From: Paramarasmius palmivorus
Taxonomy: Eukaryota > Basidiomycota > Agaricomycetes > Agaricales > Marasmiaceae
Assembly (NCBI GenBank): GCA_037176845.1
Contig: JAYKXP010000050.1
Location: 310,001 to 374,000, forward strand
Length of the DNA: 64,000 nt
Direction: 5' to 3'
Below are positions 10,443 through 64,000 of this stretch, one piece after another. The position numbers and the translations under genes were made by a program. Position 1 is the first letter of the stretch; each line of letters begins with the position of its first letter. The notes beneath the pieces were generated by a model, which saw only the letters and a list, made by a program, of their open reading frames with translations, had not been told where the DNA came from and did not search any database.

Positions 10443-13400
10443 ATGCGCGCGTTTTTCAAACCCTTCGCAATACACGCGGCGTATTCCCCCATTGAAACCA
10501 TTGTATTCTTCTTCGTGCTCGCGACTCTCGCATACTTCCATGTCTTGTCGACCATAAAGCATTCGACATTCTTTGCCACATCACATCCCTCAACACTTCG
10601 TCCAACTTATCTCTTTCGTCGTAACCAAGACTGGAAGAAAGTCCCGGAATCAGCATGGAACATTCACGCAAAAGCAGGTGCAGACAGCACTGTAATCCCT
10701 GTGGAGTTGCAGCAGGTGGTTTTCGCTCTGGACTCGGTACACGGTAAAGATGTGAGTGCTGAATCAGTTTTGTCTTCTGATGGTTGGAATTAACACGCTC
10801 TCAGGTCGTTCCAGAATCCATCACTTTCGCTATCAATGAGTTATCGGGCGCCGTATCCAATATCACCAAGCATTTGCCCCGTTCATTGCAATCATCATCA
10901 GGACGGAACTTTGATAGCTCCTGCTACCGACCCTCTCTTGGTGGAGTCAACTTCTCAAATGCGGAGGTTCCGGTTTCATGCTTTACCGATGAAGTCGTCA
11001 ATGCGCGCGCGATTTACGAAACCTTGGCATTCGTCCCTGGGCAGAAGGAAGACTTTGCGTCTGCACTTAACCGTGTCTTGAAGTCATCAGTCAACGAGGA
11101 TGGCGTTCACTTCCAGGTTGAGGCCAGGCAGCCAGAGACTATTAGCGAAATGAAGGACAGCAAATGGATTGCTTATGCTGCGAGGGCATTAGTCGTACGA
11201 TTCTGGGATTTGACCAAGGTCAGACCACTAGCTCATATTCACACATATCTTTCTCTAACTGGAAATTTTTTCATCGAACCACAGAAGGCCGACTCGCTTG
11301 ACATAATGCTCATTCTTGCAGGGTACATTTTGATGCATGTGACGTTTATCCTTCTCTTCACACGTTCCCGGCGGCTTGGATCCAACTTCTCGCTGCCTGC
11401 GTCTATTCTGTCCTCCGCAATTCTCGCATTGCTGCTTGCACTCCCCATTGCCACATGGCTCCGCATCCCGATGGACCCAGTTGCGCTCACTGAGGCACTC
11501 CCCTTCCTTGTTTGCACTGTGGGCTTTGATAAGCCTCTTCGCTTCGCTCGTGCAGTCTTCAGCCACCCTCATCTCACCAGCCCTGTGGGCGGTGCCAGTT
11601 CCGGTGGAATGCTCAAGCCTGCCGGTGAGGTTATTCTGGAGGCACTGTCCAACATTTACAGTCCCATCCTCCGTGACTACATCTTGGAGATTGCGGTACT
11701 AGTCATTGGCGCCAACAGCAAAGTCAGCGGTTTGAAGGAAGTTTGCGCTCTTGCCGCTTTGGTGCTGGCCATTGACTGTCTTCTTCTGTGCACATTCTTG
11801 GCATCCGTTATGTGTATTATGATCGAGGTGAGCGTTTATTTCGGATGTTCGGCTTCTTGTTCTCTTTTTGCGTCCGTGCCTGTGGGCAATCCCACGTGGC
11901 ACTGCATGTTGTTGATGTTGTCCCGCGTTGAGCTCCTGTCTCGACTGCAGGCCTATATCCGTCTTAATGTTTCTCTCAACATGAATTAGTGCTGATCATT
12001 CTTATCTGAACTCCAGGTCAGAAGAATTCAGAACGTTCGTGCCAACTCATCAACCAAGCCTACCGGAGCTGTTACGTTCCCAGACGGATCATCAACCAAA
12101 GGCACCGCAACTCAAGCACCTCCGAGTTTGACACGAAAGCTGTCCAAGATGGTGTTGGGCGTTAAAGGTTCCAGCCTTCCCGCATCAGGTTCACGAGAGG
12201 CTAAGCAGGAAAGTCCGGTTGCGAGACTCAAGCTTCTTTTGGTGAGTCATACCATTTCTACTGTTGTTATAACCTTCAACATGCTGATGATGAACTTCAA
12301 TGAAGATTGCCGCATTCCTAACTCTCCATATCCTCAACTTCTGTGCTCCTCTTACTCAGCAGCGCCAAAGCAGCAGCAGCATCATCCCTAGCGCCGCTCC
12401 TATCGCTCGTCGCGTTGATGCTACCACTCCTGCATTCCGTCATGCTTTGACTGCGCTCGCCGCTACTGAGGAAGTCGGTCTCGAGACTGAAGAGACCGAC
12501 CTCAGCTTCTTGGTCAAGGTCAACCCACCTGTCCACGTTCGCGTTACACCTCCCCAGTCACTTCTTTCTGCCGCCGAGTCGACCAAAGCCGACTCTTCCT
12601 CCGGCGACTTCTTCGAGAACTTCTTGACCAACTGGACCCGACTTGTTGGTGACCCACTCATGTCCAAGTGGATCGTGGTTGTCCTGGCTATCAGCATCAG
12701 CTTGAACGGTTACCTGCTCAAGGGCATCGCAGCTGGTTTGGCCGGTAAGGGAGCAAGCACCAAGGGATCTGGTGTGAGATTCAGCGGAGGCGCAGAGGAG
12801 AAGATGGAAACTGCTGCACCTGAACCTGCTGTCGCCGCATCTGCCCGCAAGGAAATCGAGATTGCAAAGATCTCACCTCCTACTCCACCTCCCGCGATGT
12901 CTCCTCCCCATTCACCTCCCAGAATGCCTGCCACCTTCACCTTGGACGATGTCAGTCGCCGGCTCAAGGCTCGTAAGCTCACCGTGTCACCCCTCTCCAC
13001 CAGCACCTCGTCCTCCGACAACGAAGACTCTCCTGCCGAAGAAACTGTCAGATCTTTGGAAGAGTGTATTGAGATCTTCGAAGGCACAAAACCATCGAGC
13101 TTGGCCACCACTTTGTTGAACGACGAAGAGATCATTCTCTTGTGTCAGAATGGCAAGATCCAGGCGCACGCACTCGAGAAGGTTATTGGTAACTCTGACC
13201 TCGAAAGGGCTGTTAGGATCAGAAGATGTCTCGTCTGTGAGTAACTTTTGATTATGCTGTGTTGCCTTATACTTACATGCTTTGCAGCCCGTGCATCCGT
13301 TACCAAGACCCTCGAGTACTCTGACATCCCGATGAGCCACTACGACTACTCTCGTGTGATGGGTGCTTGCTGTGAGAACGTTGTCGGCTACATTCCCCTT

Positions 13401-19787: not shown

Positions 19788-20788
19788 CGCGGAAGGGGCG
19801 AGTTCGTGGTGGCAGACAGTGAGCACGCGTCGTCTTTGTGCGTGACCGACTTCCCAACTGTTTCACAAGACCCGGCGCTTTTGGCTCCTGCACCACGAGG
19901 AATCGATCCAACTTGTACATGACCTCCATTCTTCAACAGCACAAAAAATATCATATCATTGGCTAGTCAAAATGGAACAAAGTAAGTAGTCTTGTACAGA
20001 TTTGAGATATTTTGGGTGACTGATTTTCACCAGAAGGTCAACAGCATTGTGGGTGGCCTTGCTTGACGTGACACTTAGGTCGGAGCATTTAGGGCTTCAT
20101 TTTTCTCCTGGTGAGCTTATTGAAGCGAGAAATATCTGCTCTTCACTGAATTTTACGGTTGTTGCCTTTCACTTGAGAAGGAACTTCCCTGCCCAGTAAT
20201 TAGGGTTTCATTCAGGTTTCATTCCAAGACGGCAACTTCCCGAAGAAGAGTCGATAGCCCTCTTCAGTTGTCGTCCTCCACCATCGTCACAGTGCGATAT
20301 CTTCACCTACTATCCCGAGACTTGCATTGTCGGCCAGCGGCAACGAAAAACGGTTGATCTCCCCCTATACTTAGCTATGATGCGCCTACGACGATAGTCG
20401 CCTAGACAAAGTATGTCATATATCACTAAAGTTGCCAGATCGGTGTATCACTGAGTAAAACAGCATGCAGAGCCGTGATACATTCCAAGAGAAATCGATA
20501 ACATACAAACTCCGCGATTCAGCCCAAACAACGTTCACGATAGCTGTCGTCTCTTGCATCGTATGTTTTGCACCAATTCCTATTCACCAATCACCGTTTA
20601 ACGTGGTCTCTTTGGATAGTAGCACGCGAGGAAGTGAAGGAGACAATCAAGACTCGTGCTGGCAACTGGACCATCTCAGAGAACAATGGGAAGCATCAGT
20701 CACAGTCACAGGCCACAGCAGAATTCGATGCTAAAAGCCCTGTGCTTCGCTTCAATGCTGAACATCATTTCCCTCTTTCATCACAGTC
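19788..20788. other. divergent promoter region between Pds5 and a FunK1 kinase
   Basis: One kilobase separates the divergent starts of Pds5 (minus) and the kinase at 20,789 (plus). It marks the border between the conserved block and the accessory region. Short open frames occur but none is supported as coding. Confidence 0.5.
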
Positions 20789-23066
20789 ATGTCTCCAGCA
20801 GAAACACCATGTCCTGACCCCCCAAAGGCGTCGAGCTTACCTCCAAAACCACGCCGAGACCTGTCCTTCCTACTCTCTGATATATCCAACGAGAAACTAG
20901 TACCACTCGAAGCCTACATGACCACTGTCTTACACATCCCTGAAGACACCCCTCCCCAGTTGGATGCCATCGCAGACTCGACCGCATTCCTCCAGCTACT
21001 GAAACAGTACTGCAACAAGGTGAACAGCGACGCCGATCGCTACCCGCGCTTCGTAGCACTGGTTAACCACACCATTGACGAGATGGTCAAGCTGGGTGTA
21101 ACAACCAACCCGGCAGAATTTACCGTCTGTTTATCGCGCCCAAAGCCTGTCGAAGGTGTGCCGCCGGAAATGACACCTAGCACAGTCGGTGTGAAGGCGT
21201 CAGCGATCGATGTTCGGATTAGCCAGGATGAGAAGGAATCAGGAAAGGATGTCCCTGCCGCTGCGCAGGCTAGTCCCAGCTCAGCGTTCATGTGGGACGA
21301 GCTCCTCACGTTCTTCGAGTTCAAGATGGAGAGGAAGACGATCAAGAATGGGATCCGAGTACCTAAAGCTGTTACAAAGAAAGGTAAAGTCTCTGCTTCT
21401 GTTGTTGTCTGTTCTAGTGCTGATGCACTCTTTCAAATGCCAGCTGGTCCCAAGCAACAACCACCTACTCCGCTCCATACATCTACTCCATCCAAAGCGC
21501 ATCGAAGGAGTATTCGCCTCGCTGAGATTCCATGTGATCCCTCACCAGCACCCGTTAGTGGTGTGAAGCGCCCCCTAGAAGAACCCGGTGATGATGCCGG
21601 CACTGTAACGGCGAAGCGACCTACCAAACGAGCCAGAACCTACAATTACTTCCAACAGCGGTTCCTGTGTGCAAGCTACGCCCTTGACATGCTCAACCTA
21701 GGTGGAATACGTACCCACGTCATCGGTGGGCTGGTTGTCGACGATAACCTTCAGCTCTTCCTCTATACTCGCTCAGGAATATGCCGTACGGAACCTTTTT
21801 CCTTCGTTGAGCAGCCACGTATATTCCTCCGCATACTTTTGGGGCTCTCTCGTATGACTCTTTCCCAGTGGGGTGTCTTTGAAGGCATGCTTACTCACCG
21901 ACTATCATGCACATCGGTACCTCCTGCTACTCCCCAGCTTCAACCTGATCGGACATTATACATGAACAAATCTTTCGTGTTGGGCGATTTTCAGTTTGTT
22001 GTTGGCTGCATTCTCGTCTTTCCTTCCAGCCTGACCGGCTCCGGGACGTGGATCATCCAAGCAACGTGTTTAAAGCTGTCTTGGCTCCGGCTTGTGATCA
22101 AATTCTCCAGTGTATCTGCGAAACGAAAGCCAGAGTGGGTGTTTCTTCAGGCAGCGTATCAAGCTGCCCAGAAGGACCAACAACACATCATGGTTCTAGA
22201 CCACTTGCCCAATTTGCTATGTTGGGACCAGTCTGAGTTTGAAAAATCGTTTGTGCCGCTGTTTGGAGAGGGGTTTGAGTGGAAGGAGATGAGGGTGATG
22301 GTAGTGGAGGAGTTGGTGCCTATTACACGTCTTTCGGATCCCGTCCATTTTACTCAAGCTTTCAGGGAGACCATCATTTGTAAGTGGTGTATCTGTGACT
22401 GCTGTTCCAGCCGGTAATAACTGAATCTATTCGGCAGGTCACAAGTGGCTCGTCGGCTACCCCGGGATTATGCATCGCGATATCAGCATGAACAATCTGA
22501 TGTTCCGGATGAACATAAATAAAAAGATCTGTGGTGTCTTGAACGACTTTGACCTTGCTTGCTTCATCAGCGAGATGAACGATTTTCAGGCTCTTCAGCG
22601 AGCTGGTACGAAACCATTTATGTCTATAGACCTCTTATGTCCACCGAACATCGAAATGGAGCCAATGCACTATGCACGATATGATCTCGAGGCGTTCGTC
22701 TATGTCTTTGCCGCGATAGTCGCCCACTACGAGGACGGCAGATATACCAGTAACCCTTTGTACGAAGAATGGTTCAAGGGTACTTGGGAATCTGCCGGCA
22801 CTGCCAAACGTGTTTGGCTAATGGAACCGTTGGCAGAGGAAAGCTTGACTGCCAACTACAAATCGCTCAAGGATTTGTTGAGTAGCCTCAGGACTCAGCT
22901 TCGATATGGAAGGAACGAGTTTCGGGAAGCTCTGGCTCGCAAACATCGACATGATGGGCAACTCAAGATGCTTGATGGGCAGCCGTTTGACCAAACAACT
23001 TTAGGTGGGTTTGTGACCTATGAACACATCCTCGCAGTCTTTGGGGATGTGTTTTCGTATACGTAG
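20789..23066 (+). CDS. FunK1 fungal protein kinase, copy A
   Basis: FunK1 kinases are a mushroom-expanded, protein-kinase-like family. Exons 20789-21383, 21444-22379 and 22438-23066 close in phase and give 719 residues. The N-terminal half has the family region (LVPLEAYMTTVLHI, then DADRYPRFVALVN) and a MWDE-LLTFFEFKM block. The kinase part has a catalytic loop with MHRDISMNNLMF, a metal-binding NDFD in place of DFG, GTKPF at the end of the activation segment and RYDLEAFVYVF. The final intron falls in phase 1 just before H-K-W-L-V, as in all other copies here. Intron 1 is 60 bases with no stop, so its retention would only add 20 residues. It is followed 458 bases later by copy B on the same strand. 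Substrates are unknown. Confidence 0.92.
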
Positions 23067-39155: not shown

Positions 39156-41699
39156 ATGGGGAATCGATTATTCTCGTCTCTGCGCCGTTTTTGGTCTCAT
39201 GTGAGGCGAGACAAGACTGTTCATGATCGCAAGGCAGGAGCTGATAGAGGAAAGGCGAACACTGCCATCAAGGCCGCCGGTACTGAAGGTATTGAATGTC
39301 GTGAAGAGTCTGTTGTGCCTCAGGCATCTCGGATTTTGGACGAGACAGGGACCAGTGGGTGAGCTATATTCCTTTTGGTTTTTGCATGTGCTTGTGAACT
39401 GAACTTCATTAGAAACCTTTTCTCTGAATCCTCCAACATTCATATAAGTAACAGTAATTTCAACATGGTCAACAGGGGCGCTCTTACTTGTTCCAGCTCA
39501 CTGCCACCTCCAACGTCGACTTCTTGTCAACTGTCCACCTCCACCACAACCACCGTTGGGTATCGACCATGAAAGTAGCGTATTATACGCCGACAGTGAA
39601 GCCAACGAAGCTTTCACACTCTCGTCATCCTCAAACCACGACCATCTCAGTCAGCCCCCCACTGACAGCGAAATATACGCACGCCAGCTCCTGCCAAAAC
39701 TCAATGGCTATCCTCTATGGAATCCTGACGTCTCCTGGGAGAAGCAGAAAAGAAGTGTCTCCATTGGCGACGTGGGCTACATTGACATCGATGGACGTTT
39801 TCATTATCTGTTCAACATCCTATACCCCGCCGATGACCCACGAAACGGCCCCCACCGTGTTCCGCCCACTTTCGAGCCTCTGAGTAACCTCAACCTTGGC
39901 ACACACACGCACAAGTACCCAAATCAATATGGCTTAGGTGCATTTGTGTGTAGCCCACAAATTGAAGTTCGCTCTCTACACCCCAAAGACATACAAAGCG
40001 ACTCGAGGTTCTGGGATATCTCCCAGTGGCTGGTGTGCGCTCCTACCACTGTTTACATCCTTTCCGAAACTCACTGTTCATTAGTGATGGCCTCATCCCC
40101 GAAGAAGTTGGCTACGGCTACCGAATCACTGGCAAACGTTCCGAGGGTGCGATTCTTATTCTTCCCGACGGTGCTGCTCGGACGGATTTCCTGGACGAAG
40201 ACCGCTTCGAAGAATATGCATACAAGAATGCCATCTCGTGGTATATCTACGCCAACGGCCAGCTTGGTCGTTGTATCGGGGGCAATTCACTCATGTTGGT
40301 AACCGGTCTGGACAAAGCCAAGACTTGGGGTGTAGCATCTTACACTTGCAGTGAACCGAATACCGTTCAGATGGACTTTGTTCCTGGCATTCGAGCGGCT
40401 ACTAAGTACCGATTCCGAAATGTCGGTTCTGCTACCGCGAATACTGGCCCTACTCGAACCCCTTCGGATGCTCAGGATCAGTGTGTTTTTGTTCGTGGTA
40501 TTCGTGTGGCTGTTCGGGAGCGTGGTCTTCATGTGGACGCACGCAGTATGAAGTCTATGTCGAGCCAGGAGGTGTTATACCGGAGCAAGTCGACACCTTT
40601 CCGGTACCATTTCATTGATGAAGATCATTGGGTTGTTGTACCAGACCAAGCTGGTCAGCAGGATCTTCAACTGAAGACAACTTTGAGGCCCGTATGAGGA
40701 CACCGCTGAAACGCCAATGCCTCTGCGAATGGTGAGCCATCACTCCTCGTGTCAATCCATCATACTTAAATTTAGGTCTTAGCCGTACCATCCTGCCGCT
40801 GTCATCAATGAACATCTGCTCAATTCGGTGTGTGCTAAGCTCTTACAGTATCTCCCACAATGCTCACGAATAGACAGTACCCAGAGATAGATACGGCTGT
40901 CACTCATGACAAGCAGTGGTTTGGTTTGCTTGGAGATGTGAGTTCGATTAAGTCCTGCGCCTTACGCCGTCTCATTAGACCTGACCACTGAGGCACTGTT
41001 TAGGGGGAAGACATCATGCCTGATGATCAAGAGCTTATTGGCCGCCTGGAGAGGAAGTTTGACGTCGTACCCATTCCTTCCGGTCCCGAAAGTGTCTTTT
41101 GCAGTTCGACCTGTGATCTTGGCGCTCAGCGCAGCAAAGGCACGAATCGCGTTCGGCTCGTGCCTAAAACATCCCCACGAGAGGATAATAACTCTGGGAC
41201 TGCAAGTTCACGAGAAATCATGGGAAATACTCCAGCATCGCAGGACGAGGCGGTATTTTCAGATCTCATGCGGACATCTTTGGTTTCTCTGCCTCCATCC
41301 AGTCGGGAAGGTGCGTTTTTGAATTGATATGAGGAATGTTATTGAAAGTAACGGAATGTCCCATAAGCAGCGATACCATCTCATAGCCAAAACGAAAGTG
41401 GTGAACCAAACCCTTCGAGTACCTCACAACCGGATCCAGAGTTCTGGCTGTTCGAAGAAACGGTACCTGTTGATATAGACCAGGAGTCTTCAACAAGTTC
41501 TTCAACGTCTAGCACCGACCGCGAAAGTACGCGTCAAACTCCGGATACCGAGATGGGTTTACACCAACTTGGGTTCCTAGAAGGAACTGATCCGTTGCTT
41601 GAGATGGCTTTCTTCGAGCTAGCTCCCGGAGTACTGAGTGATGCCGACAGTGAGTGGTGTCCTTTGATATGGAATTCTTTAGAGTCCTCATGGATCTGA
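39156..41699 (+). CDS. mushroom-specific family protein with I-x-x-x-x-F motif and acidic C-tail (paralogue of the 49.8-kb gene)
   Basis: Eight exons close in phase: 39156-39358, 39413-39559, 39597-40034, 40085-40691, 40783-40827, 40878-40937, 41004-41310 and 41368-41699, giving about 712 residues. The weakest is the 37-base intron at 39,560. The protein starts MGNRLFSSL, a Gly-2 start but with Phe rather than Ser at position 6. It has an HISNSNFNMVNRG motif early on. The core domain has SEIYARQLLPKLNGYPLW, IGDVGYIDIDGRFHYLFNI, ILPDGAARTDFL, NAISWYIYANGQLGR and LMLVTGLDKAKTWGVASY, and then HPAAVINEHLL and THDKQWFGLLGD. The Ser/Thr-rich end has acidic-hydrophobic patches (EFWLFEETVPVDIDQE). 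I regard it as a mushroom-expanded family of unknown function. Exon sizes of 45 and 60 bases are identical to those in the paralogue. Confidence 0.78.
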
Positions 41700-42119
41700 A
41701 AACCAGGAAAAATGATCAGGGCCCCGACGAGTGGGTGGTCTTCGCTACCAGATTTCCATTTACAATGCCAATCTGGTTCCAGGTGGCCTGCTCGCGATTG
41801 AGAGGCGTATGGATGGATGGATCTGCTTGACACATATGTACACAGATAATTTGTATTTGTATTTCACAACCGAAAGCTAGTAGACTATATATTTCTGAGT
41901 AGGAGGAGAAAATCTCTGGTGGTACGACTCGGATAAACCTTGTATGGCATATCAGAAACTTTCCAGGGCCGTTTCAAGTTCCGTGGATTTACGCTCACGC
42001 AGATAAACTCAGCGTAGTCTTAGAGCTTCTGATAGGTTCGTCTAGATCTTGGCGAATGTGATAATCCTGCAATTTCATGATGAATTGATGGCGAGTCATT
42101 TCGGAGATGAATCCAAATC

Positions 42120-49830: not shown

Positions 49831-52446
49831 ATGGGAGCGGTCAAATCTTGCTTGAAAGCCCTCTGCTGCTGTGGACCCGGAGAGGATACGGCTGCAAACA
49901 ATAGTAGAGAAACCGAACAAGCTCAAGGGGGAGGCTCCGAAGGAGTTGATGGTAGTCGGATTGAGAAGGTGTCGGATTTAGGCGAGAAATGGGTGACCGG
50001 CACTGAGAATCTGCACAGGACACCTCCTGCTGCACCATCCGCTGCAGAAATGGGCACAGATATCGACACGGGTGGAGTCGAGCTGGGCAAACCAAATGCG
50101 ACACCTCCGCAAGATGAGTTTGGAAACGGCAATTCGACGAAGATACCAAACGGCACGACTGTGGTGGTATCTAGCGATCCCCCCAATCCAGAGCCTTCTA
50201 GGGAAGTAAAAGATTCGATGAGGCAAGTCACTAGCAGCATATCATGATGCCTAAACCTCACATTAATTCTTTTAGCATCTTGTCAGGAGCCTCCGACACT
50301 AAAATATCAGGTGGTCAATTCATTAACGTAAACGGTTCAATGGTTATGTGGGTCCACCATACAAATAATTCACCTCTCATCCCACTGGGAGCGCCAGCCT
50401 ACCCCAGCGGTGGTAACGATATACAACAGGCTCAGCCTACCGACAGCGAAGTCTATGCATGGCATCTACTACCAAAAGCGAACGGTTATCCACTGTGGAA
50501 GCCTAATGCCGATACAGCACACATCGGCGATGTGGGTTACATGGACACTGACGGTGGCTTCCAATACTTATTCAACATCCTACTCCCCGCTGATCACATC
50601 CGAAATGGACCCAATTGTGTTCCGCGTCATTTTGAACCCCTTTATGTTCATGATCTTCCCCGGAATACGAAACAAACTCATCAATATCGGCCGGGTACCC
50701 TAGTGCATAACCCACCAGTCGAGGTGCAAAGAATCCTCAGTGACGACATCGAGGATCTTTCTGAGCGACAGGAAATATACTCGAGGCTTCAGTGCGTTGA
50801 AATCATCGCCATATGATATATCGTTCTACTGACTCTAATATTTAACACAGAAAAGGTGACATACCCAAAGAAGTCAGCTACGGCTCTCGGATTACTTCAA
50901 AGCATTCCGATGGCGCACTTTTACTACTCCCCGACGGAGCTTCGCGGAACGATTACCTAAACGAGGACCTCTTTGAAGACTATGCACGGGAGAATGCTAT
51001 CTCGTGGTACACCTATGTCAATGGCGATCTTGGCCGTTGTGTCGGAGGGAACGCATTAACATTGGTCACTGGGGTGGACAATGCCAAAACATGGGGTGTA
51101 GCGACCTTCTCTCGCAGCTTGCCAGATACGGTTCATTCGATGGACTTTGTCCCTGGCATCCAAACAGCAACCAAGTATTGGTTCCAGACTTACCGTTCTG
51201 CTATTGTAGACGCTGGACCAGTTCAACCTCACGATGAATTGGATCAATGCGTTTTTATTCGGGGGTTTCGGGTGTCTGTTCGAGAGTACGACGGTCACGT
51301 TGAAATGAAAAAGTGGAAACGTTTGCCAAATTCGGAGATTATGTCTATAGTCGAAACAATTCCCTTCCGACACCGCCGCCGTTCGATTCCGTCCAAAGAA
51401 CAAAGTCAAGTGGAACTCGATGATAGCGAGCAGGTCCGACATGGCAATGCAAAGCCGTTGCCTGTGAAGCTGGTGAGGCATCTCCCAGATGTCAATCAAG
51501 TCCACCATGTCACTGATTATCCGCTATGTAGCCGTATCACCCTTTGGCCGTCATAAACGACTATCTGCTCAGAACGGTGTGTTTGTCCTCTTTTTCTTCT
51601 ACTTATACTCATGTAGCCACAGAATCCGCAAGTTGACGTAGCCCTTACCCATGATAAACACTGGTTTCCTCTGGTTAAAGACGTGAATTCCTTTTTCATA
51701 TAATTTTACGAATTCCACCTCATCATAGGTCACAGGGAAGTATGCCTAGTAATGAGGAGCTCATCAGCCGCATGAGGGAAGAATTTGAGCTGACCTTTCC
51801 CGGAGGTGCGTATTCATCTAGTATCGAATTTAGTGCTTCGTTTTTAACATGTTGATTTTAAAGGCACCTCACGCGCCAAACTTGTACCGAAAGGAGACTC
51901 AAATCAGGCCGGTGGTGATTCTCCAGGGAAACCTATGCAAGAAGAGGTTGAAGACGATAGTCCTCTGGATTCTGCCTCGCCAATAAAAATGGCGGACAGC
52001 GAGTCACCGTTACTGCCTACCGAAAGAGAGCAGAGACCTCCGAACCGTGTTGGGAGCACCACAAATGGGAAAAATAGCCCTCAACAACCCAAGCACGTTG
52101 GACCCGCGTTCTCTGAACCAGTTTCAGATGCTCTACTTGCGGATGCTATATCAGAGCTGCCTTCCACTATAAGTAAGCCTTATCACCAAAGCAATTCATT
52201 CGAGACTTACCCGTCCATTCTCAGCAATACCAGCCATTGGGAATTCTGCGCTATCGAAGCCGTGTCGTCCTTGGTATGTTAACTGATGGTTATAGTTCTG
52301 AACCATTACTTACTGTTACTATGACTTGCAGCTCTCAACATGACCTTGAATGTGATAAAGTGATGCCTGTCTGCGAGAACTGTAGGCGTACCGAGCGGGA
52401 ATGCAATTACAGCAATAATGGTGCCGACTCGGAAGACGATAAGTAA
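49831..52446 (+). CDS. predicted lipid-anchored protein with C-terminal Zn(II)2Cys6 DNA-binding cluster
   Basis: Nine exons close in phase: 49831-50222, 50276-50791, 50851-51490, 51532-51576, 51623-51682, 51736-51805, 51864-52172, 52225-52273 and 52332-52446, giving about 731 residues. The N terminus MGAVKSCLKALCCCG fits N-myristoylation (Gly2, Ser6) with adjacent cysteines for palmitoylation. A disordered stretch and the motif TKISGGQFINVNGS follow. The core family domain has SEVYAWHLLPKANGYPLW, IGDVGYMDTDGGFQYLFNI, LLPDGASRNDYL and LTLVTGVDNAKTWGVATF, and then HPLAVINDYLL and THDKHWFPLVKD. A second linker leads to a Gal4-type cluster spaced C-x2-C-x6-C-x6-C-x2-C-x6-C (KPCRPC...ECDKVMPVCENC...ECNY). 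The second Cys codon is split by the last intron. The first intron is GC-AG (AG|GCAAGT). Membrane tethering, release and DNA binding are inference. Confidence 0.8.
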
Positions 52447-52627
52447 ATATGCAAGGACTTGTAGGACATGATCGTATGTATCAATGAGTGGACAATTAGG
52501 GAATTGTTGTACATTTAGTTCAGATCATCATGTTCAATTGCGATACTGATTCATATACACGAAATCACAACGTAGAAAAGCATAAATCAACGAATACATG
52601 TTACATACATATATGCGGGAAAACGCA

Positions 52628-53886
52628 TCAACCTGTTGACGATGGATCGTTCTGGTCGTCAAGGAAGGAGTCGAACACTGCAAGAAGATTCGCATATGTG
52701 ACATGTCCACCCAAAGTAGCACAGTCAAAAGGTTGTCCGTCTGATCCCCGCATAATCTCGATATCAAGACGAGGGGCAACATCAGCCTCATCAAAGGCCT
52801 GGAAACCACAACTGAAGCGTTTGCAGAGCTTGTCCAAGACATGTATAAGTTCCCGGTACGAGGGCGTGACCTTGCGAGATAACGGCCGAATCAACAATAC
52901 CCATTTCGACCCTTCAGCAAGCTCCATAGTACCTCTCACCCACATATTATACGGCGGGTTCGCGATTTGTCTTCCGTGCTCGTAGCGGCCGATAATCCAG
53001 GCAAAGACGTACAAGAACGACTCGAGGTCGTACCTCGCGTAGTGTTTGTCATGGTGTGCAGCTGGAAGAGGTCTTGGTACGAATAGGTCCAAGAGGTCGA
53101 CGGAAAGGAAGGCTTTAGTTCCGGTGAAATGTGTGGACGTGGGTGGGTCGTGCTTGTCGATATCGATCAGAACACCGTAAGTGTTCCCGTCCTCGTCGTG
53201 TTGATACGCCAAGTTGTTCAAGCTGATGTCACCGTGAATGAGTTTAGGGATGCGAACAAGCCATTCATGACCTGTGAGAATCAACAAGGCATCAGGACTA
53301 TTTCGAACGTGAAAACCTGTGGGACTTACACTTGATTGTATCCTTGAAAGCGTGGACGAGCTGAATGGGATCTGCGAGAGCCGTGATTGGTAGCAGCTTG
53401 TCTGAAAGAACCACACGAGTTGGAGCCTCAAAACCCCGAGCAAATGGTCCTTCTCCAACGCCCCGATATTGCTTCGAATGATTTGCGTCGTAGTTCTTCG
53501 CGGCCTGGATAAACATCCGTTCCGAGGTTCTTGACTCGAACCGCCACGAAGATTTGCTTATAGGGGGTAGATCTAGGGAGCGTGAAGCCTGAAGGTCATG
53601 CATGGAGGGCATAGGTGAATCAGTGTCGAAAAGTAGATATGATAGGGCATCGTTCGCAAGCTGTCTAGCCTCGACCGACCACAATCCTTCAAAGTCAAAT
53701 TTCGCTCTCTTAAATCCGTGTTCTTCAGCCCGGTCGTCATTAGACTCCTCTCGAGGGCGTTTCGGTATGTGACGCGAAGCTAGATTCAATACCACTAGTA
53801 TCTGTTAGACAGAACGATACAGAGACCAATTAAACCTGCTCACCATGATCATCGTACCCGGCTGGTGCTTCATCAACGAAGTTCAT
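52628..53886 (-). CDS. short FunK1-type kinase, copy D (N-terminal domain missing)
   Basis: Exons 53844-53886, 53330-53794 and 52628-53271 close in phase and give 383 residues, about half the length of copies A-C. The N-terminal family region and the YMWDD block are absent. After a KRPREES basic/acidic start, conserved parts are DKLLPITALADPIQLVHAFKD, catalytic loop IHGDISLNNLAY, IDID at the DFG position, GTKAF, RYDLESFLYVFAWI and DGQPFDCATLGGHVTY. The catalytic-loop Arg is replaced by Gly (HGD), while the catalytic Asp and Asn remain. HGD loops occur in active small-molecule kinases, so activity is possible. The last intron is at the position shared by all copies. The gene and about 220 bases of its upstream DNA are duplicated in inverted orientation at 60-61.6 kb. 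Confidence 0.8.
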
Positions 53887-54110
53887 TTTTGCCGTTCCAC
53901 AAAGCATCCCAATTCGAGTAGAAAGAATGGCTTGTTGGACTGGCTCTGATCTTGGATAGGATATCTCAAACTACTGGTGTTAGGGTGGTTGGTCTTTATA
54001 ACTGGCTGATGTGGCCCGACATCCATTGTCCTCCCATTATCTCCAAAAGCTGATACATAAAACAATCAATACGATATATGTTGAATATCAGAATACATAC
54101 TACTAAAGGA
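53887..54110 (-). repeat. upstream flank of copy D, duplicated upstream of copy E
   Basis: Read on the minus strand, this flank has GTATGTATTCTGATATTCAA, then GGAGATAATGGGAGGACAAT, GGATGTCGGGCCACATCAGC and a TATA-like TTATAAAGACCA. The same blocks in the same order precede copy E at 60,028-60,180 on the plus strand. The segment therefore holds the shared promoter and is part of a longer inverted duplication. Confidence 0.8.
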
Positions 54111-54434
54111 GTTTCGCAACTCGACACGAATACCAGCAGCCTCAGGCCCTAATCCCGAATCCGGTGTCGCGTCTCGCTCGGTATGTTTGGCAGATGAACC
54201 TTCCTCGTACTTGGCTAGCAGATTGACCTTGAAGTCATGGCATACGTAGGCACTCGATGCCTGCTAAATGATGAGGTATACGAGTCTGTTGCTGCCGATG
54301 AGCTCATCGGTGAGTGGAAAGAAGCTGTGTGACTCGCGTGACATGTAGTTGGCTCGGCTGCGGAAGCGAACGTCATCAAACTACTCTTTGACGTCGACCT
54401 TAGCGTCGAGCTCATCGCTACACTCGACGACGGA

Positions 54435-56661
54435 ATGGCTGATGGAGGAGTCGGTTCACGACTTCCATTACCAGTTCTCATTCTTACCGGACTGTGTACA
54501 TTCATCGCCGTCGTAATCTCTGCCACTTCAATATGGCTTCAACTGAAGAATTATCGAAAACCTGCTTTACAACGGTGTGTTCCCTGTCTTGCTGCTTGTT
54601 CATTGCTAATAAACCTGTAGAATGGTTGTACGAATAATGCTAATGGTGCCACTATATGCCATCTCTTCATTCATCGCCCTATTCTCCCTCTCCGCCGCCT
54701 TCTTCATCGACGCCATCCGTGACATCTACGAAGCCTTTGTCATCTACTGCTTCTTCGTCCTTCTCCTCTCTTACCTCGGCGGCGAACGTTCCCTTCTCAT
54801 CCTTCTCCATGGTCGTCCCCCAGCATCCCCACCATTCCCTATAAACTTTATCATGCGCGAAATAGACGTCAGCGATCCATACACTTTCCTATTCCTCAAA
54901 CGTGGAATCCTGCAATACGTCCAACTTAAACCCCTACTCGCAATCGCGACTATGGTGTTGAAAGCCACAGGAAAATATAACGACGGTGACCTCCGGGCCA
55001 ACTCTGGCTATCTCTACATAAGCATCATATACAATTTCAGTATATGTCTCTCTTTATACTGTCTAGCCATGTTCTGGATCTGCGTTAGCCAAGATCTCAA
55101 ACCATTCCGCCCCATGCCTAAATTCCTTTGCGTCAAAGGCATCCTATTCTTCAGCTTCTGGCAAGGCATTGCCGTTAGTATCTTGGTTGCTGCGGGTGTA
55201 ATCCGCTCTTTCGGCCCCTACACCGAAAGTGAATACATCTCCACCGGCCTAACCGACACCCTAATCTGCATCGAAATGCCTCTCTTCGCCATCGCTCACC
55301 TCTACGCATTCTCTTACACCGATTTCATACACCCAAACCAAACATACGTCGCGCGCATGCCCATCTCGTACGCATTCCGCGATGCCTTCGGCATCAAGGA
55401 CGTTTGGCAGGATATGAAGACGACGTTAAAGGGCGAAGGCATGGATTACAGGGAATTTGAACCTTCGGAAGGGTTTATGCATCAAGGTTTGGGGAGAGAA
55501 CGACGTATCAGAGCTGGATTGCGGTATAGCAAGGGCGGGAAGAGGAAGTATTGGTTACCACAACCAGGGGTTGGACAGCCTCCTGGGGTCGCGGAACGTG
55601 CTGTCAACCGAGCTATAACCAAAATCGCTGGTAGAGACCAAGGCGAAGAAGTCCACGCACCTCTGCTACCAAACCAAGCCGAGCAAGCGTATCATGACGC
55701 ACTGGATTTACATCCCGAACAAGTGGTAGACGTTTGGAACGTCAACGCGCAGAATAGGGAAGGAGGCTTCGAGTTACCTTTTGGAGATCCGGAAGATGAA
55801 GACGAGGAATTATACGAACATTGCAAAAAGTATATTTTTGGGGATTATAATTACCCTGTCGTTGATGTTAGCTCGGAGAGTGCGAGGGACACGATGTGGA
55901 GAGAGGAAGAGAGAGTTTTGAGGGATGAACAGAGTGCGTGGTTTGTCGGACCTGGAGCTGGGATTGGGAAGGTGAGATGGGAAGGGTATGGAGCTGTTGG
56001 GACGTCTGTGCCGCGTTCACAATACCATGGATATAGGGATCATAAAAAGGAGCGAGTTATTGATCACGACACGGAACGTGCAGAATCTAGCGCGAGTGGA
56101 TCGATGGATGTTAAGATGAGGTGGACGAAGAGGCCGCCTTCTCATTCATCCTCACCTTCTACGTCTTCACCTTCACCGTCTACTTCCAGACCTATCTCGA
56201 GAGTAAACTCAACACGCCACTCACCGCCTTCCAAACCGAGATCACGTGTCAACTCCCAACCGTCGCCAGCTAAACCGAAATCCCCGCTACCACCAGACGC
56301 AGTCGACTTGGTTGTTGAAGCCGCCCCTTCACCTACATCGCCTACCTCGCCTTCTCCGACAGGAAGAACACCCCTGAAGAAAGTCTACCGTCGGGGAATT
56401 GTCGGTCCAGAAGGTGAACATGCAGAAGTGCAAGTAAACACGAGTTCTCCGCGGAAAGGTGAAGAGGTGTTGAGTGCGATTGAGGATGAGGGGTCGATTG
56501 TTGAGGAGTTGATTGAAAGGGAAGAAGAGGCAGAGGAAGAAGGAGTGAAAGATGCAGAGATCGTTATGGGTGTGGATGTCAATACACAAGGTGAAGTGGC
56601 GAGAGTGGTGACGCCGCCGGCGCATGTGTATGGGATTGATGAAGGGAACCCGTGGAGTTGA
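54435..56661 (+). CDS. TMEM184 / organic solute transporter alpha (DUF300) family membrane protein
   Basis: Seven-helix membrane proteins of this family include the Ost-alpha transporter subunit. The fungal members are of uncertain substrate and sit in plasma or endo-membranes. Exons 54435-54574 and 54621-56661 give 726 residues. Hydrophobic helices are visible from PVLILTGLCTFIAVVI through to HLYAFSYTDFIHP. Family landmarks are NYRKPALQRMVVRIMLMVPL across the intron, DIYEAFVIYCFFVLLLSYLG, GGERSLL, FLKRGILQYVQLKPLL and the long cytoplasmic C-tail. The tail (residue 340 on) is acidic and then Ser/Pro-rich and probably phosphorylated. An extra upstream exon from an ATG at 54,237, joined by a 39-base intron, also closes in phase and would add about 66 residues. 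It diverges from copy D. Confidence 0.88.
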
Positions 56662-57840: not shown

Positions 57841-57901
57841 TTCCTATTGCCTGCCAGAGGAATTCTTATTAGAAGATGCACTGGTGATTTGAAAGACTAA
57901 C

Positions 57902-59676
57902 CTTGGCCCACAGGTAGATCTTCCTAAAATCATCAAAAACCTCATAAGGACCACGAATCCAAACCATAAAGGAGATCTCCACTGTAAGTAAAGGATAAAA
58001 GTCAATTGTGGATAATGCTTCAAGTAGATCAGAGCTTAGAAAGAGGACTTCTGTACACGATCTCCAGACGTATAAGATTTCAACTAACACCTCATTGTGC
58101 AGATCTTTGAGCCTGGAATCCCACAGAGTCAAAGCCTCGGCAAAAGAATGTGGATGATACGGGGGATATTGTTGAGCAATGCCTGATAATGCACAGAGAC
58201 AGGCTGTGGCCACACAGTCATAGTACTCTGCCTTAGACATGACCGGAACGTGATATTGACGGGAACGATTCGGATCGACCAAGAACTCCCTGAACGAGGC
58301 ATGTGCGATGCGTATGTCACTAGACCATTTGCTCTTTGGGAACAAAAGTACAGAACATATTCTATCCAGCATAATTTCAACCTCGCTTTCCTCAAAGCCT
58401 GAAAGCCAGGCAATCATTGCAGGAGACTCTCGCCAGGAAACTCGTTCACGAGTCATAAGGGTCATCCTTTCCGGCATCCCATCAGGTGTGATAAGTAGTC
58501 GAAGAATAGGTTGCACCTTCTCCCATTTGCGGCACGTCGACAGAATCTGATAATAGAGTGCATCTAGCACTGGATAAGGTGACTCCATATCAGCCTTGAC
58601 CTGGATACGAAGAACAGTCGCCAAGCGATCCTGGGGAAGGTCATCGCGAGTGTCGATATATTTTATGACCGTGACCGCGAAGATCATCTGCTTGTCGGCT
58701 CTTCCGACCAGCTCGTTGACGACGTGATGCTCAGGCCATGAAGAGGCCTCTCGCCTCAAGACCCGGTAGTATTTTGTTCTGAGGATGGAGAACTGATCAG
58801 TGAGATATCGTTCAATATCTCTGTTCAGCTCGTTCAGCTCGTTCATGTCGAAGGTTTCGAGGATGCCATTGAAGGCTGGGTGTTGAAAAGCATGGCGGAT
58901 TTGAGCCTCGGGACGACTGCATATGAGAATATTCCACGAAGGAAGCCTGCAGACAGACACCAACGTGAGAAGTATTCTCAATACCCTTTCCCGCGAATCC
59001 TGATCAACGCATTCATCGAGACCGTCAACAATGAGGAGATTCGGAGATATTCTCCGTAATGCGGGTTCCACAACACTACATGGCTGAAGAATCAATTGCT
59101 GAAGCTGATTCTCACACGTGGTCCGAAAAATGTTGGGATGTGAACTGATTATTTTAATAATCTCTGGAGCAAGTACATTGCATAGAGGTGATCCAGCTTG
59201 GCAGAATTGGTATGCGATGGTCGGTATGAAAGAATGTATGTTGTCCCGAGTAGAATCGTTGCGCGAGAAAAAGAATGCAGCAGCAAGTCTGCCGGTAGCA
59301 GCGTATCTGTCTGCAAGATGTTGTGCGATCGCCGATTTACCGATTCCTGCGGTGCCATGCAGCCAGAAGAAATTGGTGGTCTTCGAGCTGTCCTCGATCC
59401 AGCGTGTTAGATCGTTGAGGAGCTGCACTCGGGTCTCTGGATGACAATTGGGCAAGGGGAAACGATGTTCGGCATCGTGACAAGCGTTGGGCGCAGCTTC
59501 CTCCGACAGGCGGTCGAAAGACTTCGAGTCTAAAATCCAGAATGAGCGGCAGTGACTAGGATAGAGCAGCACACGAACGCACGAGTTTCGTTCATACGAA
59601 CTATATTGATTTGATCCCTTTGTACTAGGTTAATGGCATCTCTGCCAATATTGACTCTCGAGCCATTGAAAGACAT
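57902..59676 (-). CDS. NACHT-domain NTPase (NLR-like), N-terminal and NACHT exons
   Basis: STAND-class NTPases of this kind act as switches in fungal self/non-self and immune-like signalling. Exon 1 (59598-59676) starts at an ATG and encodes only 26 residues with the Asn/Gly-rich motif NGSRVNIGRDAINLVQ. Exon 2 (57902-59529) holds the NACHT core: Walker A LHGTAGIGKSAIAQ, FFFSRNDSTRD, Walker B NLLIVDGLDEC, sensor-like ILICSRPEAQI and a winged-helix-like region with IAHASFREFLVDP. The exon ends after WAK at a GTTAGT donor, the same place as in the second NACHT gene. No ankyrin, WD or TPR repeats follow; the C-terminal exons at 57.1-57.8 kb look degraded. Without splicing at 57,901 the protein ends at 57,869. 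Confidence 0.85.
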
Positions 59677-60281: not shown

Positions 60282-61631
60282 ATGTGCTTTGTTGATGAAG
60301 AAGCAGCCGGGTACAATGATGTCCATGGTGAGTAGGCTTAACTGGCCTCTGTATCATTTTGTTAACGGATACTAGTGGTGTTGAATCCAGCTTCGCATCA
60401 CAGAGCGAAACGCCCTCGAGAAGAGTCTGACGATGACCGGGCTGAAGAACACGGTTTTAAACGAGTGAAATTCGGCTTTGGAGGACTGTGGTCGGTCGAG
60501 GCTGGACAGCTTCTTGCGAACGATACCATATCATATCTACTTTTCGACACTCCTTCATCTGTGCCTTCCGTGCATGACCTTCAGGCTACGCTTAGTTATG
60601 CTTTGGCTTCTCCTTACCGTATACTTCCCCAAGGAACATGGATTACTCAGTCAAGATACACAAGCTGCCCAGATCTTCCTTTTATCAACAAATATTCGTG
60701 GAGGTTCGAGTCAAGAAGTTCAGAGTGAACGTTCATTCAGGCCACGAAGGACTACGTCGCGAAGGATTCAAAGCAAAATCGGGGGCCGAATCGGGGCGTT
60801 AGAGAAGGACCATTTGCTCAAGGTCCTGGGGCTACAAAAGCGTCAACTGTAGTTGTTTCGGACGAGCTGCTACCAATGACGGCTCTCACGGATCCCATTC
60901 AGCTCGCGCAAGCTTTCAAGGATACGATCAGGTGTAAGTCTCACAAATTTTCACATTCGAAAAAAATAGTTCTGATACTTTGGTGAATCTCATATGTAGG
61001 TCATGAATGCCTTGTTCGGATCCCAACAATCATGCACGGTGACATAAGCTTGAATAACTTGGCGTATCGACAGGACGAGGACGGGAAGACATATGGTGTT
61101 CTATTCGATTTCGATAAACACAAACCACCCACGCCCAGACACCTCACCGGCACCAAAGCCTTTCTTGCGTTCGAACTCTTAAACCCGTCATACGTTCATC
61201 TCGCTATATACAAACAATGTGCAAAATACGACCTCGAGTCGTTCTTGTACGTCTTTGCTTGGATCATTGGTCGCTACAAAGGTGGACAACAAATCCCAAA
61301 CCCGCCGTATAGTGCGTGGACGACTGGGAGGTGTGCCGAAGGATCGAAATGGGATTTATTGATTCGGTCTTCATCTCGCAAGGTCACATCCTCGTATCAG
61401 GATCTTATTCCCATCTTGCACGCCCTCTGCACTCACTTCATTAATGGTTTCCGAGCCTTTAGTACAACTACTATTGGCACCCTTCATGGAGTCTCGTTAT
61501 TGCAGGGAACGGACGGACAACCTTTTGACTATGCCACTTTGGGTGGTCATGTTACACACTCAAATCTTCTTGCGGCATTCGACCTCCTGCTGCATCCTAC
61601 TTCTGACGACCGCGATGATTCACTGCGTTGA
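60282..61631 (+). pseudogene. short FunK1-type kinase, copy E, with in-frame nonsense codon
   Basis: Exons 60282-60327, 60376-60933 and 61000-61631 close in phase over 411 codons and align with copy D throughout (KRPREES start, MTALTDPIQLAQAFKD, catalytic loop MHGDISLNNLAY, FDFD, GTKAF, YDLESFLYVFAWI, DGQPFDYATLGGHVT). A TGA at 60,726-60,728 interrupts exon 2 where copy D has Arg (CGG). Matching sequence resumes in the same frame straight after it, so a CGA-to-TGA type change is the simplest explanation. There is no frameshift. Unless the stop is read through or corrected, the product lacks the catalytic part. As in copy D, the loop is HGD. Confidence 0.8.
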
Positions 61632-61815: not shown

Positions 61816-64000
61816 TCAGCGCTCAGGGGTTAACCAGAGTCGCCGAAGAATGCCAAACACTGGCGATAGCTTCTTGGTTTCGAGTAGCATGACCGTGTCA
61901 TCACCAGAGAACGAATCGCCCTTGGGGTGTGGCGTCGGTAGGTTTACGAATAGATCTCTGCGCTCGTACAAAAGCGCTTTGAATTCGACCAGATCTTCCT
62001 CCTGGTGAGATTAGTCAGCCGTCAACACGCTGATAATATGCCAAGTACTACCTTCACCAGCTTCCGACCGTCAATACTTTCCAAAGTATTGTATATTATA
62101 TCGCTATCGAATACCCCTCGAGCGTCTTCGTCAAGAGATTTGCGTATATAATACATCTTCCTCAGGATGTCTCCATTAAATTGTGTAGCGTGGTCTGTGA
62201 CCCAATTCTTGGGGAGTACCTCAACTAGGTTGTATGTGCTAGGGAACAGTAGCCCATAGAACCCCCCGTGTTCGTTCGACTCCGAGTCGTTCCACCATCC
62301 CTGGAAATACTTGCAAACGATATCGAGGATCTCCTCTCGGTCTTGCCAAATGTCAAATGTACAAAAGCCACACTCCACGGAGAAGGTCCTTCGAACCGCA
62401 TGCATTCGCCAAGTTGTTGGGCTATAGGCAATATGGCAGGCTTGGAAAAAGTCGTCCATTCTCTTGATAAATGTCACGGGCGCCTTTTCTCCGAGTGTCT
62501 AACTCGGTAATCAGATCATCTGGAGAAGCTTTGAAACGTATTGGCTCACCTTTGCCCATGCTACACAATCCTTCCAGTCAGAAAATACAAGTGCGATGTT
62601 GTAGGAGGAAAAGACAGTCAAATCCCCAACAAGGCAAGGATCGAATTTTTCCAATTCGGCTAGCAAGTTGGCACTTGGGAACTGAACTCGACGACGGTAA
62701 TCTGGCCAATACGTAATTGCAAAGTGGAGTAGGATATCATCGCTGCGAACCCTGTTTTGCCATTCATCGGACAAGGTACCGAACGCACGCGAATCCTTTG
62801 ATATGTGATATATGGGGTACCAAGTTGCGAAGGAAGAAAAAGTGTGAAGAAGGAGCACTGTAACATGATCACAGTACTCAGCCTCGGAGTATTGTTGTAC
62901 GCAATACTCTCCTGACCTAGCACTGCCGAGGAGAAATTCTGTAAACGAGGCATGTAGAATGTATATCGGTGAATATGCCTCCTCGGGAACATGCAATACA
63001 GCGTGCAGCCGAGATAGGAGTGTTTCAACCTGACCCCATTTCAGCTTAAAGAGGCCCGCAATGACCAATGGCGAATGCCAATGAATGTCCTGGGTGAGAA
63101 TACCGCGAAGATTCGGATGTGGGGTGACCAGTAGTCGAAGAATGGTCGAAACTTTGTCCCAAGCAGGGCATGCAGACAAAATCTGTCGATAAAGTATATC
63201 CAAGTCAGGGTACGGAGAACCCTGGATCTCTTTATTGGGTTTCGTCATGAGGATGGTCTCTAGCCGATCCTGTGGTAGTTCGTCGAGGGTATCTATATAC
63301 TTGATAACCGTGCTGGCAAATATAAACTGCCCGCTTGCTCTCCAGACAAGGTCCCTGACCACGTCTTCACTCGGCCACGTCTCTCCTTCACTCCGTAAGA
63401 CCCGCCGGTACTTCCTTCGGAGGGCACCAAATCTCTCCAAAAGATATTTCTGTATGTCCAAGTCTGCTTCAGATAGGTGGCCGAGGAACCGGATTGTTGT
63501 TCCTGAGATCTCGATGCGTTCGAGACATGAGCTGAAGGCTGCATTGTCGATAGTATCGCGGATCTGTGGTTCGAGTCGACTGCAGAGGAGAAAGATGAAT
63601 GGAAAGTGTCCTCCGGATGTGACTCGTGTAGTGAAGGTGATAGCGAGGTCGATGATTTCTATGAGCCTCACCTGCAACGTGAGGTCAACGCATTCGTCAA
63701 TCGCATCGATAACGATGAGATTAGGAAGCCCCCGACGCTGAGTTGGAATGATCTTCGAAAATGGCTCGAGGATTAATTTCCGAAGCTGGGTTTCAATCGT
63801 GGTATTGAGAATATTGGGATTCGAACGGATAGTGTTGATGATTATAGGACCGACGACATCCCTGAGGAGTTCTGACGTACAGCATTGGTATGCTAGTGTC
63901 GCGATGAAGGGGTCTAGCTTGTTTCGGGTAGAATCGTTTCGCGAAAAGAAGAAGGATCCGATGAGATGATGGGAGTAATCCTCCGAGATTTTTTGGGCAA
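61816..64000 (-). CDS. second NACHT-domain NTPase, 5' part beyond the window
   Basis: A paralogue of the NACHT gene at 58-59.7 kb. Visible exons are 62550-64000 (continuing past the edge), 62052-62498 and 61816-62001, all in phase. The window edge falls just after Walker A: the first residues seen, AQKISEDYS, correspond to those following GKSAI in the other copy. FFFSRNDSTRNKLDPFIATL, Walker B NLIVIDAIDEC, FLLCSRLEPQIRD and ILHASFTEFLLG follow. The C-terminal exons carry VRRTFSVECGFCTFDIWQD, LLFPSTYNLVEVLPKNWV and EEDLVEFKALLYERRDLF, ending at LTPER. About 690 residues are visible, with no ankyrin or WD repeats. It appears intact, unlike the 3' end of its neighbour. Confidence 0.85.

What the first reader, a model, noticed from the sequence alone, without database searches (positions are those of the whole stretch)
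49831..52446. Predicted lipid-anchored protein ending in a Gal4-type zinc cluster
When nine phase-consistent exons are joined, one protein begins MGAVKSCLKALCCCG (myristoylation plus palmitoylation context) and ends in a perfectly spaced Zn(II)2Cys6 cluster. Fungal Zn2Cys6 regulators normally carry the cluster near the N terminus and are soluble. A membrane-tethered one with a C-terminal cluster and a mushroom-specific core domain would be an unusual latent trans-acting factor. Directly seen: the N-terminal residues and cysteine spacing. Inferred: lipidation, tethering and release.
Basis: partly seen in the sequence, partly recalled or inferred. Interest (0 to 1): 0.88.

Follow-up and report, generated by a model that had tools for sequence, protein, structure and literature searches.

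The report
Lipid-anchored mushroom protein with zinc cluster
A mushroom gene appears to encode a protein with a predicted membrane anchor at its start and a Gal4-type zinc cluster at its very end, in a mushroom protein family whose tails differ widely, although this particular cluster lacks the usual DNA-reading residues and may not bind DNA.

Summary
Nine exons (49831-52446, +) encode 725 aa starting MGAVKSCLKALCCCG and ending in C-X2-C-X6-C-X6-C-X2-C-X6-C, 13 residues before the stop. NCBI's Paramarasmius palmivorus model VNI00_011581 has the same ends. A splice-aware scan (39,959 GT-AG pairs, both strands of the window) finds no other C6 pattern. First, MGxxxSC recurs in relatives from this genome and Moniliophthora, so the anchor motif is a clade feature. 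Second, the C-terminal slot varies: relatives end in ankyrin repeats, DUF6593, a probable GATA finger, or a canonical Zn2Cys6 cluster lying in one exon with the conserved module. The detected Zn2Cys6 members are not one clade (AU p = 1.7e-68): gained at least twice, or lost repeatedly. Against a classical transcription factor: the DNA-reading loop is SQHDLE, without Lys or Arg, and the C-terminal segment is net acidic; no cluster was detected in close relatives. Lipidation, release and DNA binding are untested; no structure could be predicted. New variant of a known kind.

The parts
49831..52446 (+). Whole gene, nine exons, 725 aa (NCBI VNI00_011581)
49831..49875 (+). N-terminal acylation-type motif MGAVKSCLKALCCCG
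   Evidence: MGxxxSC also in P0004, P0013 and the C99 paralogue; consensus MGXXXS/T from passages of PMC4736023
50223..50275 (+). Intron 1, GC-AG, phase 2, between anchor exon and GGxF motif; in the C99 paralogue a phase-2 GT-AG intron can be read at the same place
   Evidence: C99 read by eye from the sequence
50276..50339 (+). Short motif SILSGASDTKISGGQFINVNGS (residues 131-152), resembling FxxSSGFxINGGxF in relatives
50415..51286 (+). Conserved core, residues 178-448 (spans intron 2); no Pfam, NCBIfam or PDB sequence match
51359..51385 (+). Basic hinge IPFRHRRRS, possible nuclear localisation signal; basic patch at the same place in P0004, P0013 and C99, not in P0003, P0005 or P0014
51535..51805 (+). 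Second conserved module YHPLAVINDYLL..VDVALTHDKHW..MPSNEELISRM; its 45- and 60-nt exons recur in several paralogue models
52263..52404 (+). Zn2Cys6 ligands C685-C712 across intron 8
39156..41801 (+). Tandem paralogue (NCBI VNI00_011578, P0014, MGNRLFSSLRRFW...), same core and module, no zinc cluster detected; limits read by eye from the frames

Best explanation
This is a single real gene of an expanded agaricomycete family. Anatomy (read from sequence): acylation-type N-terminus, long linker, GGxF motif, conserved core of about 270 aa, conserved module of about 55 aa, linker, Zn2Cys6 at the C-terminus. Mechanism (inferred): the core and module sense or scaffold something at a membrane and the variable C-terminal domain is the output. 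In this copy the output is a zinc cluster parked at a membrane by N-myristate plus palmitate, and it could act in the nucleus after depalmitoylation or cleavage, as a latent regulator. Supported here: gene model, recurrence of the N-terminal motif, recurrence of zinc-type DNA-binding domains at the C-terminus of the family. Inferred: acylation, tethering, release, zinc binding, DNA binding.
For: Gene model and spacing. MGxxxSC in 4 of the 6 resolved N-termini of its clade and MG in 5 of 6, against MG in 0 of 18 database relatives outside it. Same chassis plus canonical Zn2Cys6 in C288a, C288b and C37; module motif and cluster share one exon in C288a and C37 (Pfam 29.1 bits for C288a and 31.5 for C288b). 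A GATA finger (63.3 bits) follows the module in C209 and C47 through a 48/51-nt stop-bearing candidate intron, in frame in both copies. The Zn2Cys6 members are not one clade. A downstream TF gene cannot begin at this cluster: 13 residues follow it, and the next recognised ORF is an opposite-strand kinase.
Against: Loop SQHDLE has no Lys/Arg (one His). The 3 paralogue clusters have 3-4 basic residues there, and the 5 clusters readable without a splice among 8 other loci, the genome's best-scoring ones, have 2-5, His counted. C-terminal 46 aa net -3. None of the other 13 rows of its clade shows a cluster, though P0003 and P0015 are partial, P0004 ends before the module and P0015 was not scanned. 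Zn_clus below Pfam's cut-off. No fungal_trans match. No orthologue with the same cluster was found, so conservation of the cluster itself is untested.
Confidence: 0.42

Rival explanations
1. The anchor is real and the Zn2Cys6 folds around zinc, but it does not read DNA. It is a structural or protein-binding cap, and the protein works at the membrane as a sensor or scaffold, like its ankyrin- and DUF6593-tailed relatives.
For: No Lys/Arg in the DNA-reading loop and a net acidic tail; clade relatives end in ankyrin repeats (P0005) or DUF6593 (P0013), not DNA-binding domains.
Against: Lack of the Gal4 Lys18 equivalent is not decisive: S. pombe Pho7 lacks it and binds DNA (title and passages of PMC5559640). 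Another branch of the family carries basic canonical clusters and a third a probable GATA finger.
Confidence: 0.36
2. Exons 8-9 are not the normal 3' end: the true transcript ends or splices differently and the cysteine spacing is fortuitous.
For: Closest paralogue P0014 has a different tail; weak codon bias; Pfam score just under cut-off; NCBI's model may itself be only a prediction. C6 patterns can lie outside core genes: one was found on the opposite strand of C47 and C209.
Against: Single C6 hit in 39,959 splice pairs of the window; usual donors, acceptors and branch-like sites; cluster in the same C-terminal position in three paralogue loci.
Confidence: 0.12
3. The locus is a decaying family copy whose cluster is a relic that has lost its basic loop.
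For: No basic loop; large family; no orthologue found.
Against: All nine exons open with usable splice sites and all six Cys kept. The second assembly copy on C30 is identical over exons 8-9, so it gives no test of constraint.
Confidence: 0.1

Closest known systems
Classical fungal Zn2Cys6 transcription factors (Gal4, Lac9, Hap1; Pfam PF00172)
   Same: Six Cys with permitted spacing; best PDB sequence match is Lac9 (E 0.0054), next Cep3 (E 0.0056)
   Different: Cluster at the C-terminus, no Lys/Arg in the loop, acidic tail, no fungal_trans match, acylation-type N-terminus
Yeast Ume6
   Same: C-terminal Zn2Cys6 that binds DNA (title of Anderson et al. 1995, seen only as a reference entry in PMC2447501)
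   Different: No mushroom core or acyl motif in Ume6 (recall)
NCBI VNI00_011578 (P0014) and Moniliophthora proteins P0003, P0004, P0005, P0013, P0015
   Same: Same core and clade; three of the six start with MG and two of those with MGxxxSC
   Different: No zinc cluster detected; tails are ankyrin repeats, DUF6593 or none recognised (P0003 and P0015 are partial)
Fungal NLR receptors with variable effector domains (PMC9815663, passages and section 28)
   Same: Varied terminal domains on a conserved chassis; short N-terminal motifs; many NACHT genes in this genome (85 matches)
   Different: No NACHT or NB-ARC match in this protein; strict GGxF pattern in 0 of 12 NACHT loci read

Membership tests
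Zn2Cys6 zinc cluster (PF00172) | Six Cys with C-X2-C-X6-C-X5-12-C-X2-C-X6-9-C | tested here: met
   (spacing range recalled)
Zn2Cys6 zinc cluster (PF00172) | Score over Pfam's curated cut-off (21 bits) | tested here: not met
   20.1 bits on the C-terminal 55 aa, 13.9 in the whole protein; paralogues 29.1 and 31.5
Zn2Cys6 zinc cluster (PF00172) | Lys/Arg between Cys2 and Cys3 (usual, recalled as the DNA-contact loop) | tested here: not met
   SQHDLE
Zn2Cys6 transcription factor | Zinc-dependent DNA binding and gene regulation | not testable with these tools
   needs protein or cells
Zn2Cys6 transcription factor | fungal_trans / middle homology domain (common, not universal) | tested here: not met
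   Pfam lists only Zn_clus and a weak CYSTM (7.3 bits) for the whole protein
Dually acylated protein (myristoyl + palmitoyl) | MGxxxS/T with nearby Cys | tested here: met
   MGAVKSC...CCC; consensus in PMC4736023 passages, which also say Ser6 is neither sufficient nor critical
Dually acylated protein (myristoyl + palmitoyl) | Lipid actually attached | not testable with these tools
   no predictor or assay available
Mushroom core family (unnamed here) | Conserved residues of the core (GYPLW, IGDVG, LFN, LVTG, FIRG) and of the HPxxVIN / THDxxW / MPxxxEL module | tested here: met
NLR (NACHT/NB-ARC) | Nucleotide-binding STAND domain | tested here: not met

The most novel reading that the evidence does not exclude
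Mushrooms use a family of one-component sensors in which one conserved core is plugged at its C-terminus into interchangeable outputs. In separate branches the output became a DNA-binding zinc domain (Zn2Cys6 at least twice, GATA probably once), and in the Marasmiaceae branch the sensor is held at a membrane by an acyl anchor, giving a lipid-tethered latent transcription factor unlike the soluble N-terminal-cluster regulators known from fungi.
Probability: 0.3. Interest if true: 0.78.

Novelty: new variant of a known kind. Interest (0 to 1): 0.56.

Why it matters
If the C-terminal slot is a genuine output socket, a large uncharacterised mushroom family becomes a set of testable sensors, and the present protein would be an acyl-anchored fungal zinc-cluster factor. 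Separate appearance of zinc-type DNA-binding domains on one chassis would be a natural experiment in how new regulators arise, and it names concrete genes (this one, C288a/b, C209) to compare.

Tried and rejected
Structure of the core: structure prediction was asked 19 times; each time the machine was full, so the fold of core and module is unknown and no fold search was run. A profile search of PDB sequences with 25 relatives found nothing up to E 1; NCBIfam found nothing up to E 1.

Allele test: contig C30 ends inside exon 7 and is collinear with the window at 93%. Apart from a mismatch and an indel at its very end it is identical through exons 8-9 and 116 nt beyond the stop, then diverges, so it cannot test constraint.

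NLR link: I suspected that the GGxF motif was the amyloid-like motif of mushroom NLRs. A strict pattern hit 0 of 12 NACHT loci (12 of 85 read) and 10 of 19 core loci, two of the ten being a VAGGGF on the strand opposite the core. Not pursued.

P0024 (Marasmius crinis-equi), where a TF-like segment follows the core, and P0010 (core plus peroxidase) are probably annotation chimaeras of neighbouring genes (judgement from sequence and recall) and were not counted. The other database fusions (P0005, P0011, P0012, P0013, P0022) were not checked against genomic DNA or transcripts. No donor of exons 8-9 was found in the genome; the best other match is 42% over 24 aa.

A half Zn cluster 3' of a C38 core locus sits behind kinase-like sequence and was not counted.

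Full report
What is there. The window is contig C50:310001-374000 of a 68.3-Mb assembly. The gene matches NCBI VNI00_011581 of Paramarasmius palmivorus, Marasmiaceae, Agaricales. My nine-exon model was built from splice signals and frame and gives 725 aa; NCBI's 722-aa model is the same except for three residues at the donor of intron 5. Relatives such as P0013 (LLEDGEQTIP), P0003 (LIKAGEEALP) and P0005 (LIKNGEDTVP) favour the longer form. Intron 1 uses a GC donor. The last three exons carry a linker and the zinc cluster; the second Cys codon is split between exons 8 and 9.

Is it more than chance? A scan that tries every GT-AG pair 40-120 nt apart found one C6 pattern in the window, this one, among 19,416 + 20,543 pairs on the two strands. 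Pfam Zn_clus scores 20.1 bits against a cut-off of 21 on the last 55 residues, and 13.9 bits in the whole protein. The best PDB sequence match is the Lac9 cluster, E 0.0054. Codon bias of exons 8-9 is best in the true frame (0.112 per codon; coding windows mean 0.153), but 40% of 389 random stop-free windows score as high, so this adds little.

The family. By six-frame search the genome holds 64 exon matches to the protein, which I cluster by hand into 43 core loci, this gene, its tandem copy and haplotype copies included. Database searches, two of them capped at about 8,000 candidates, found relatives in Moniliophthora, Lentinula, Gymnopus, Collybiopsis, Marasmius, Mycena, Cyathus, Panaeolus and Lactarius (25 proteins with the query). 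The core matches no Pfam, NCBIfam or PDB entry.

The anchor. In a tree of 46 rows (25 database proteins and 21 paralogue models, not all 43 loci) the gene and its tandem copy P0014 are sisters inside a 14-row clade (support 100/99) of P. palmivorus and Moniliophthora sequences. Six N-termini of that clade are resolved: P0001 MGAVKSC, P0004 MGGICSC, P0013 MGNLCSC, C99 MGAIFSC, P0014 MGNRLFS, P0005 MQTTQPW. So MGxxxSC is in 4 of 6 and MG in 5 of 6; MG starts 0 of the 18 database proteins outside the clade. P0003 and P0015 lack their starts. For the six other paralogues in the clade I looked upstream for MG exons and could tie none to a splice model, although C17 (L046) has a Cys-rich candidate, MGAALNCSYAVCGCNG, 335 nt upstream of its motif. 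In C99 the anchor exon can be joined to the GGxF exon through a phase-2 intron, as in this gene (read by eye). MGXXXS/T is the usual myristoylation consensus, though Ser6 is neither sufficient nor critical (passages of PMC4736023). Lipidation itself is inferred.

The C-terminal slot. The splice-aware scan was run on 25 of the 43 core loci (24, plus this gene as positive control; for three of the 24 only 1.5 kb of flank was held). A cluster follows the core on the coding strand in 4: this gene, C288a, C288b and C37, the last being 98% identical to C288a in the core and probably its allele. As a control, the opposite strands of the 24 loci gave 9 hits, all variants of one C6 pattern in the two homologous loci C47 and C209, so such patterns also occur outside core genes. 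In C288a and C37 the module motif MPDNQTLIERV and the canonical cluster (CTNCRRRQIKC, in C37 CTNCQRRQIKC) lie in one open exon, so no splicing choice between them is needed. The other 18 loci were covered only by the unspliced Pfam search, in which I saw no match close downstream of a core on its strand besides C288, C37 and a weak one in C38 that lies behind kinase-like sequence. Random coincidence is unlikely: 132 Zn_clus matches of any strength in 68.3 Mb give about 0.06 expected within 1.5 kb downstream of 43 loci on the right strand (my arithmetic). In C209 and C47 the module is followed by a GATA finger (63.3 bits on a piece I joined by hand across a further intron). A stop codon lies between module and finger in each, but a GT-AG stretch of 48 nt (51 nt in C47) holds it, and its removal keeps the frame in both copies. 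C24 has a match to the GATA segment and its flank with no core match, so a separate GATA gene at C209/C47 is not excluded. Other relatives end in ankyrin repeats (P0005), DUF6593 (P0013) or TPRs (P0011) by NCBI's models.

History. Holding the four Zn2Cys6 rows together costs 135 log-likelihood units (AU p 1.7e-68), and two changes are the minimum on the tree. The group was chosen for the trait, and rows without a detected cluster were scored as lacking it, partial ones included. Two gains, or one ancestral cluster lost many times, both fit; two gains is simpler.

Does this copy bind DNA? The six residues between Cys2 and Cys3 are SQHDLE. The paralogue clusters have RRRQIK, RGRKIR and QRRQIK, and the five clusters readable without a splice among eight other loci (the best-scoring ones, so biased to canonical) have two to five basic residues, His counted. 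The last 46 residues carry net -3, against +7 and +6 for stretches of 53 and 58 residues around the clusters of C288a and C288b. The Gal4 Lys18 contact is, however, also missing in Pho7, which binds DNA (title and passages of PMC5559640). A basic hinge IPFRHRRRS could be a nuclear signal; a basic patch sits there in P0004, P0013 and C99 but not in P0003, P0005 or P0014.

Place in the literature. DNA-binding domains of Zn2Cys6 factors are generally N-terminal (passage of PMC10141177), central in Pho7, and C-terminal in Ume6 (title of a reference entry in PMC2447501). Fungal NLRs show varied effector domains and short amyloid-like motifs (passages and section 28 of PMC9815663). The listings of my searches on the species, on Zn2Cys6 with myristoylation, and on membrane-tethered fungal factors showed no paper whose title or abstract start deals with this protein or an acylated zinc-cluster factor; the listings are partial and the library lacks most subscription journals. 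PMC5415576 was seen in passages only.

Surroundings. The tandem copy lies at about 39156-41801. Fungal-kinase ORFs (PF17667) lie at 20762-22414, 52631-53557 (-) and 60987-61628, an Ostalpha-type transporter at 54613-56658, and NACHT/NPHP3_N ORFs at 57872-59629 (-) and 62514-63998 (-, NPHP3_N only). Pfam was run on 17 chosen ORFs, not on every gene of the window.

Verdict. Its action as a DNA-binding latent factor is possible but weakened by the missing basic loop. The wider point, a mushroom chassis with a variable C-terminal output that became a zinc-type DNA-binding domain in separate branches, is the more interesting result.

Noticed in passing
L054 2800-3560 (C209) and L053 (C47): GATA zinc finger in frame after the core and module through a 48/51-nt stop-bearing candidate intron; a second kind of DNA-binding domain on the same chassis.
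   Followed up: partly
L053 1407-1487 + and its counterpart on the - strand of L054: C6 pattern CQPCEMLGKVCSREWLCRLCREEDRFC on the strand opposite the core, also without a strongly basic loop (EMLGKV).
   Followed up: no
window about 1297 (-): GGTF motif SSGFSISGGTFNYVYGNN followed by a tandem YNNMGSP-type repeat.
   Followed up: no
window 10781-11986 (+): ORF with a sterol-sensing domain (PF12349, 44.9 bits).
   Followed up: no
window 39156-41801 (+): Tandem paralogue P0014; its tail as I read the frames looks rich in acidic and hydrophobic residues and might be an activation-type region.
   Followed up: partly
L071 1700-3400 (C38): Kinase-like ORFs (by eye) and a half zinc cluster CNFCRARKV about 2 kb 3' of a core locus.
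   Followed up: partly
L046 (C17), 335 nt upstream of its GGxF motif: Open frame starting MGAALNCSYAVCGCNG, a possible second Cys-rich anchor exon, not tied to a splice model.
   Followed up: no
C30:567182-571220 and window 52004-56000: Second assembly copy collinear at 93%, identical over exons 8-9 and 116 nt beyond the stop, then diverging; C30 ends inside this gene. Looks like a haplotype junction or assembly overlap.
   Followed up: partly
window 57872-59629 (-), 62514-63998 (-): NACHT/NPHP3_N ORFs; the genome has at least 85 NACHT matches.
   Followed up: no
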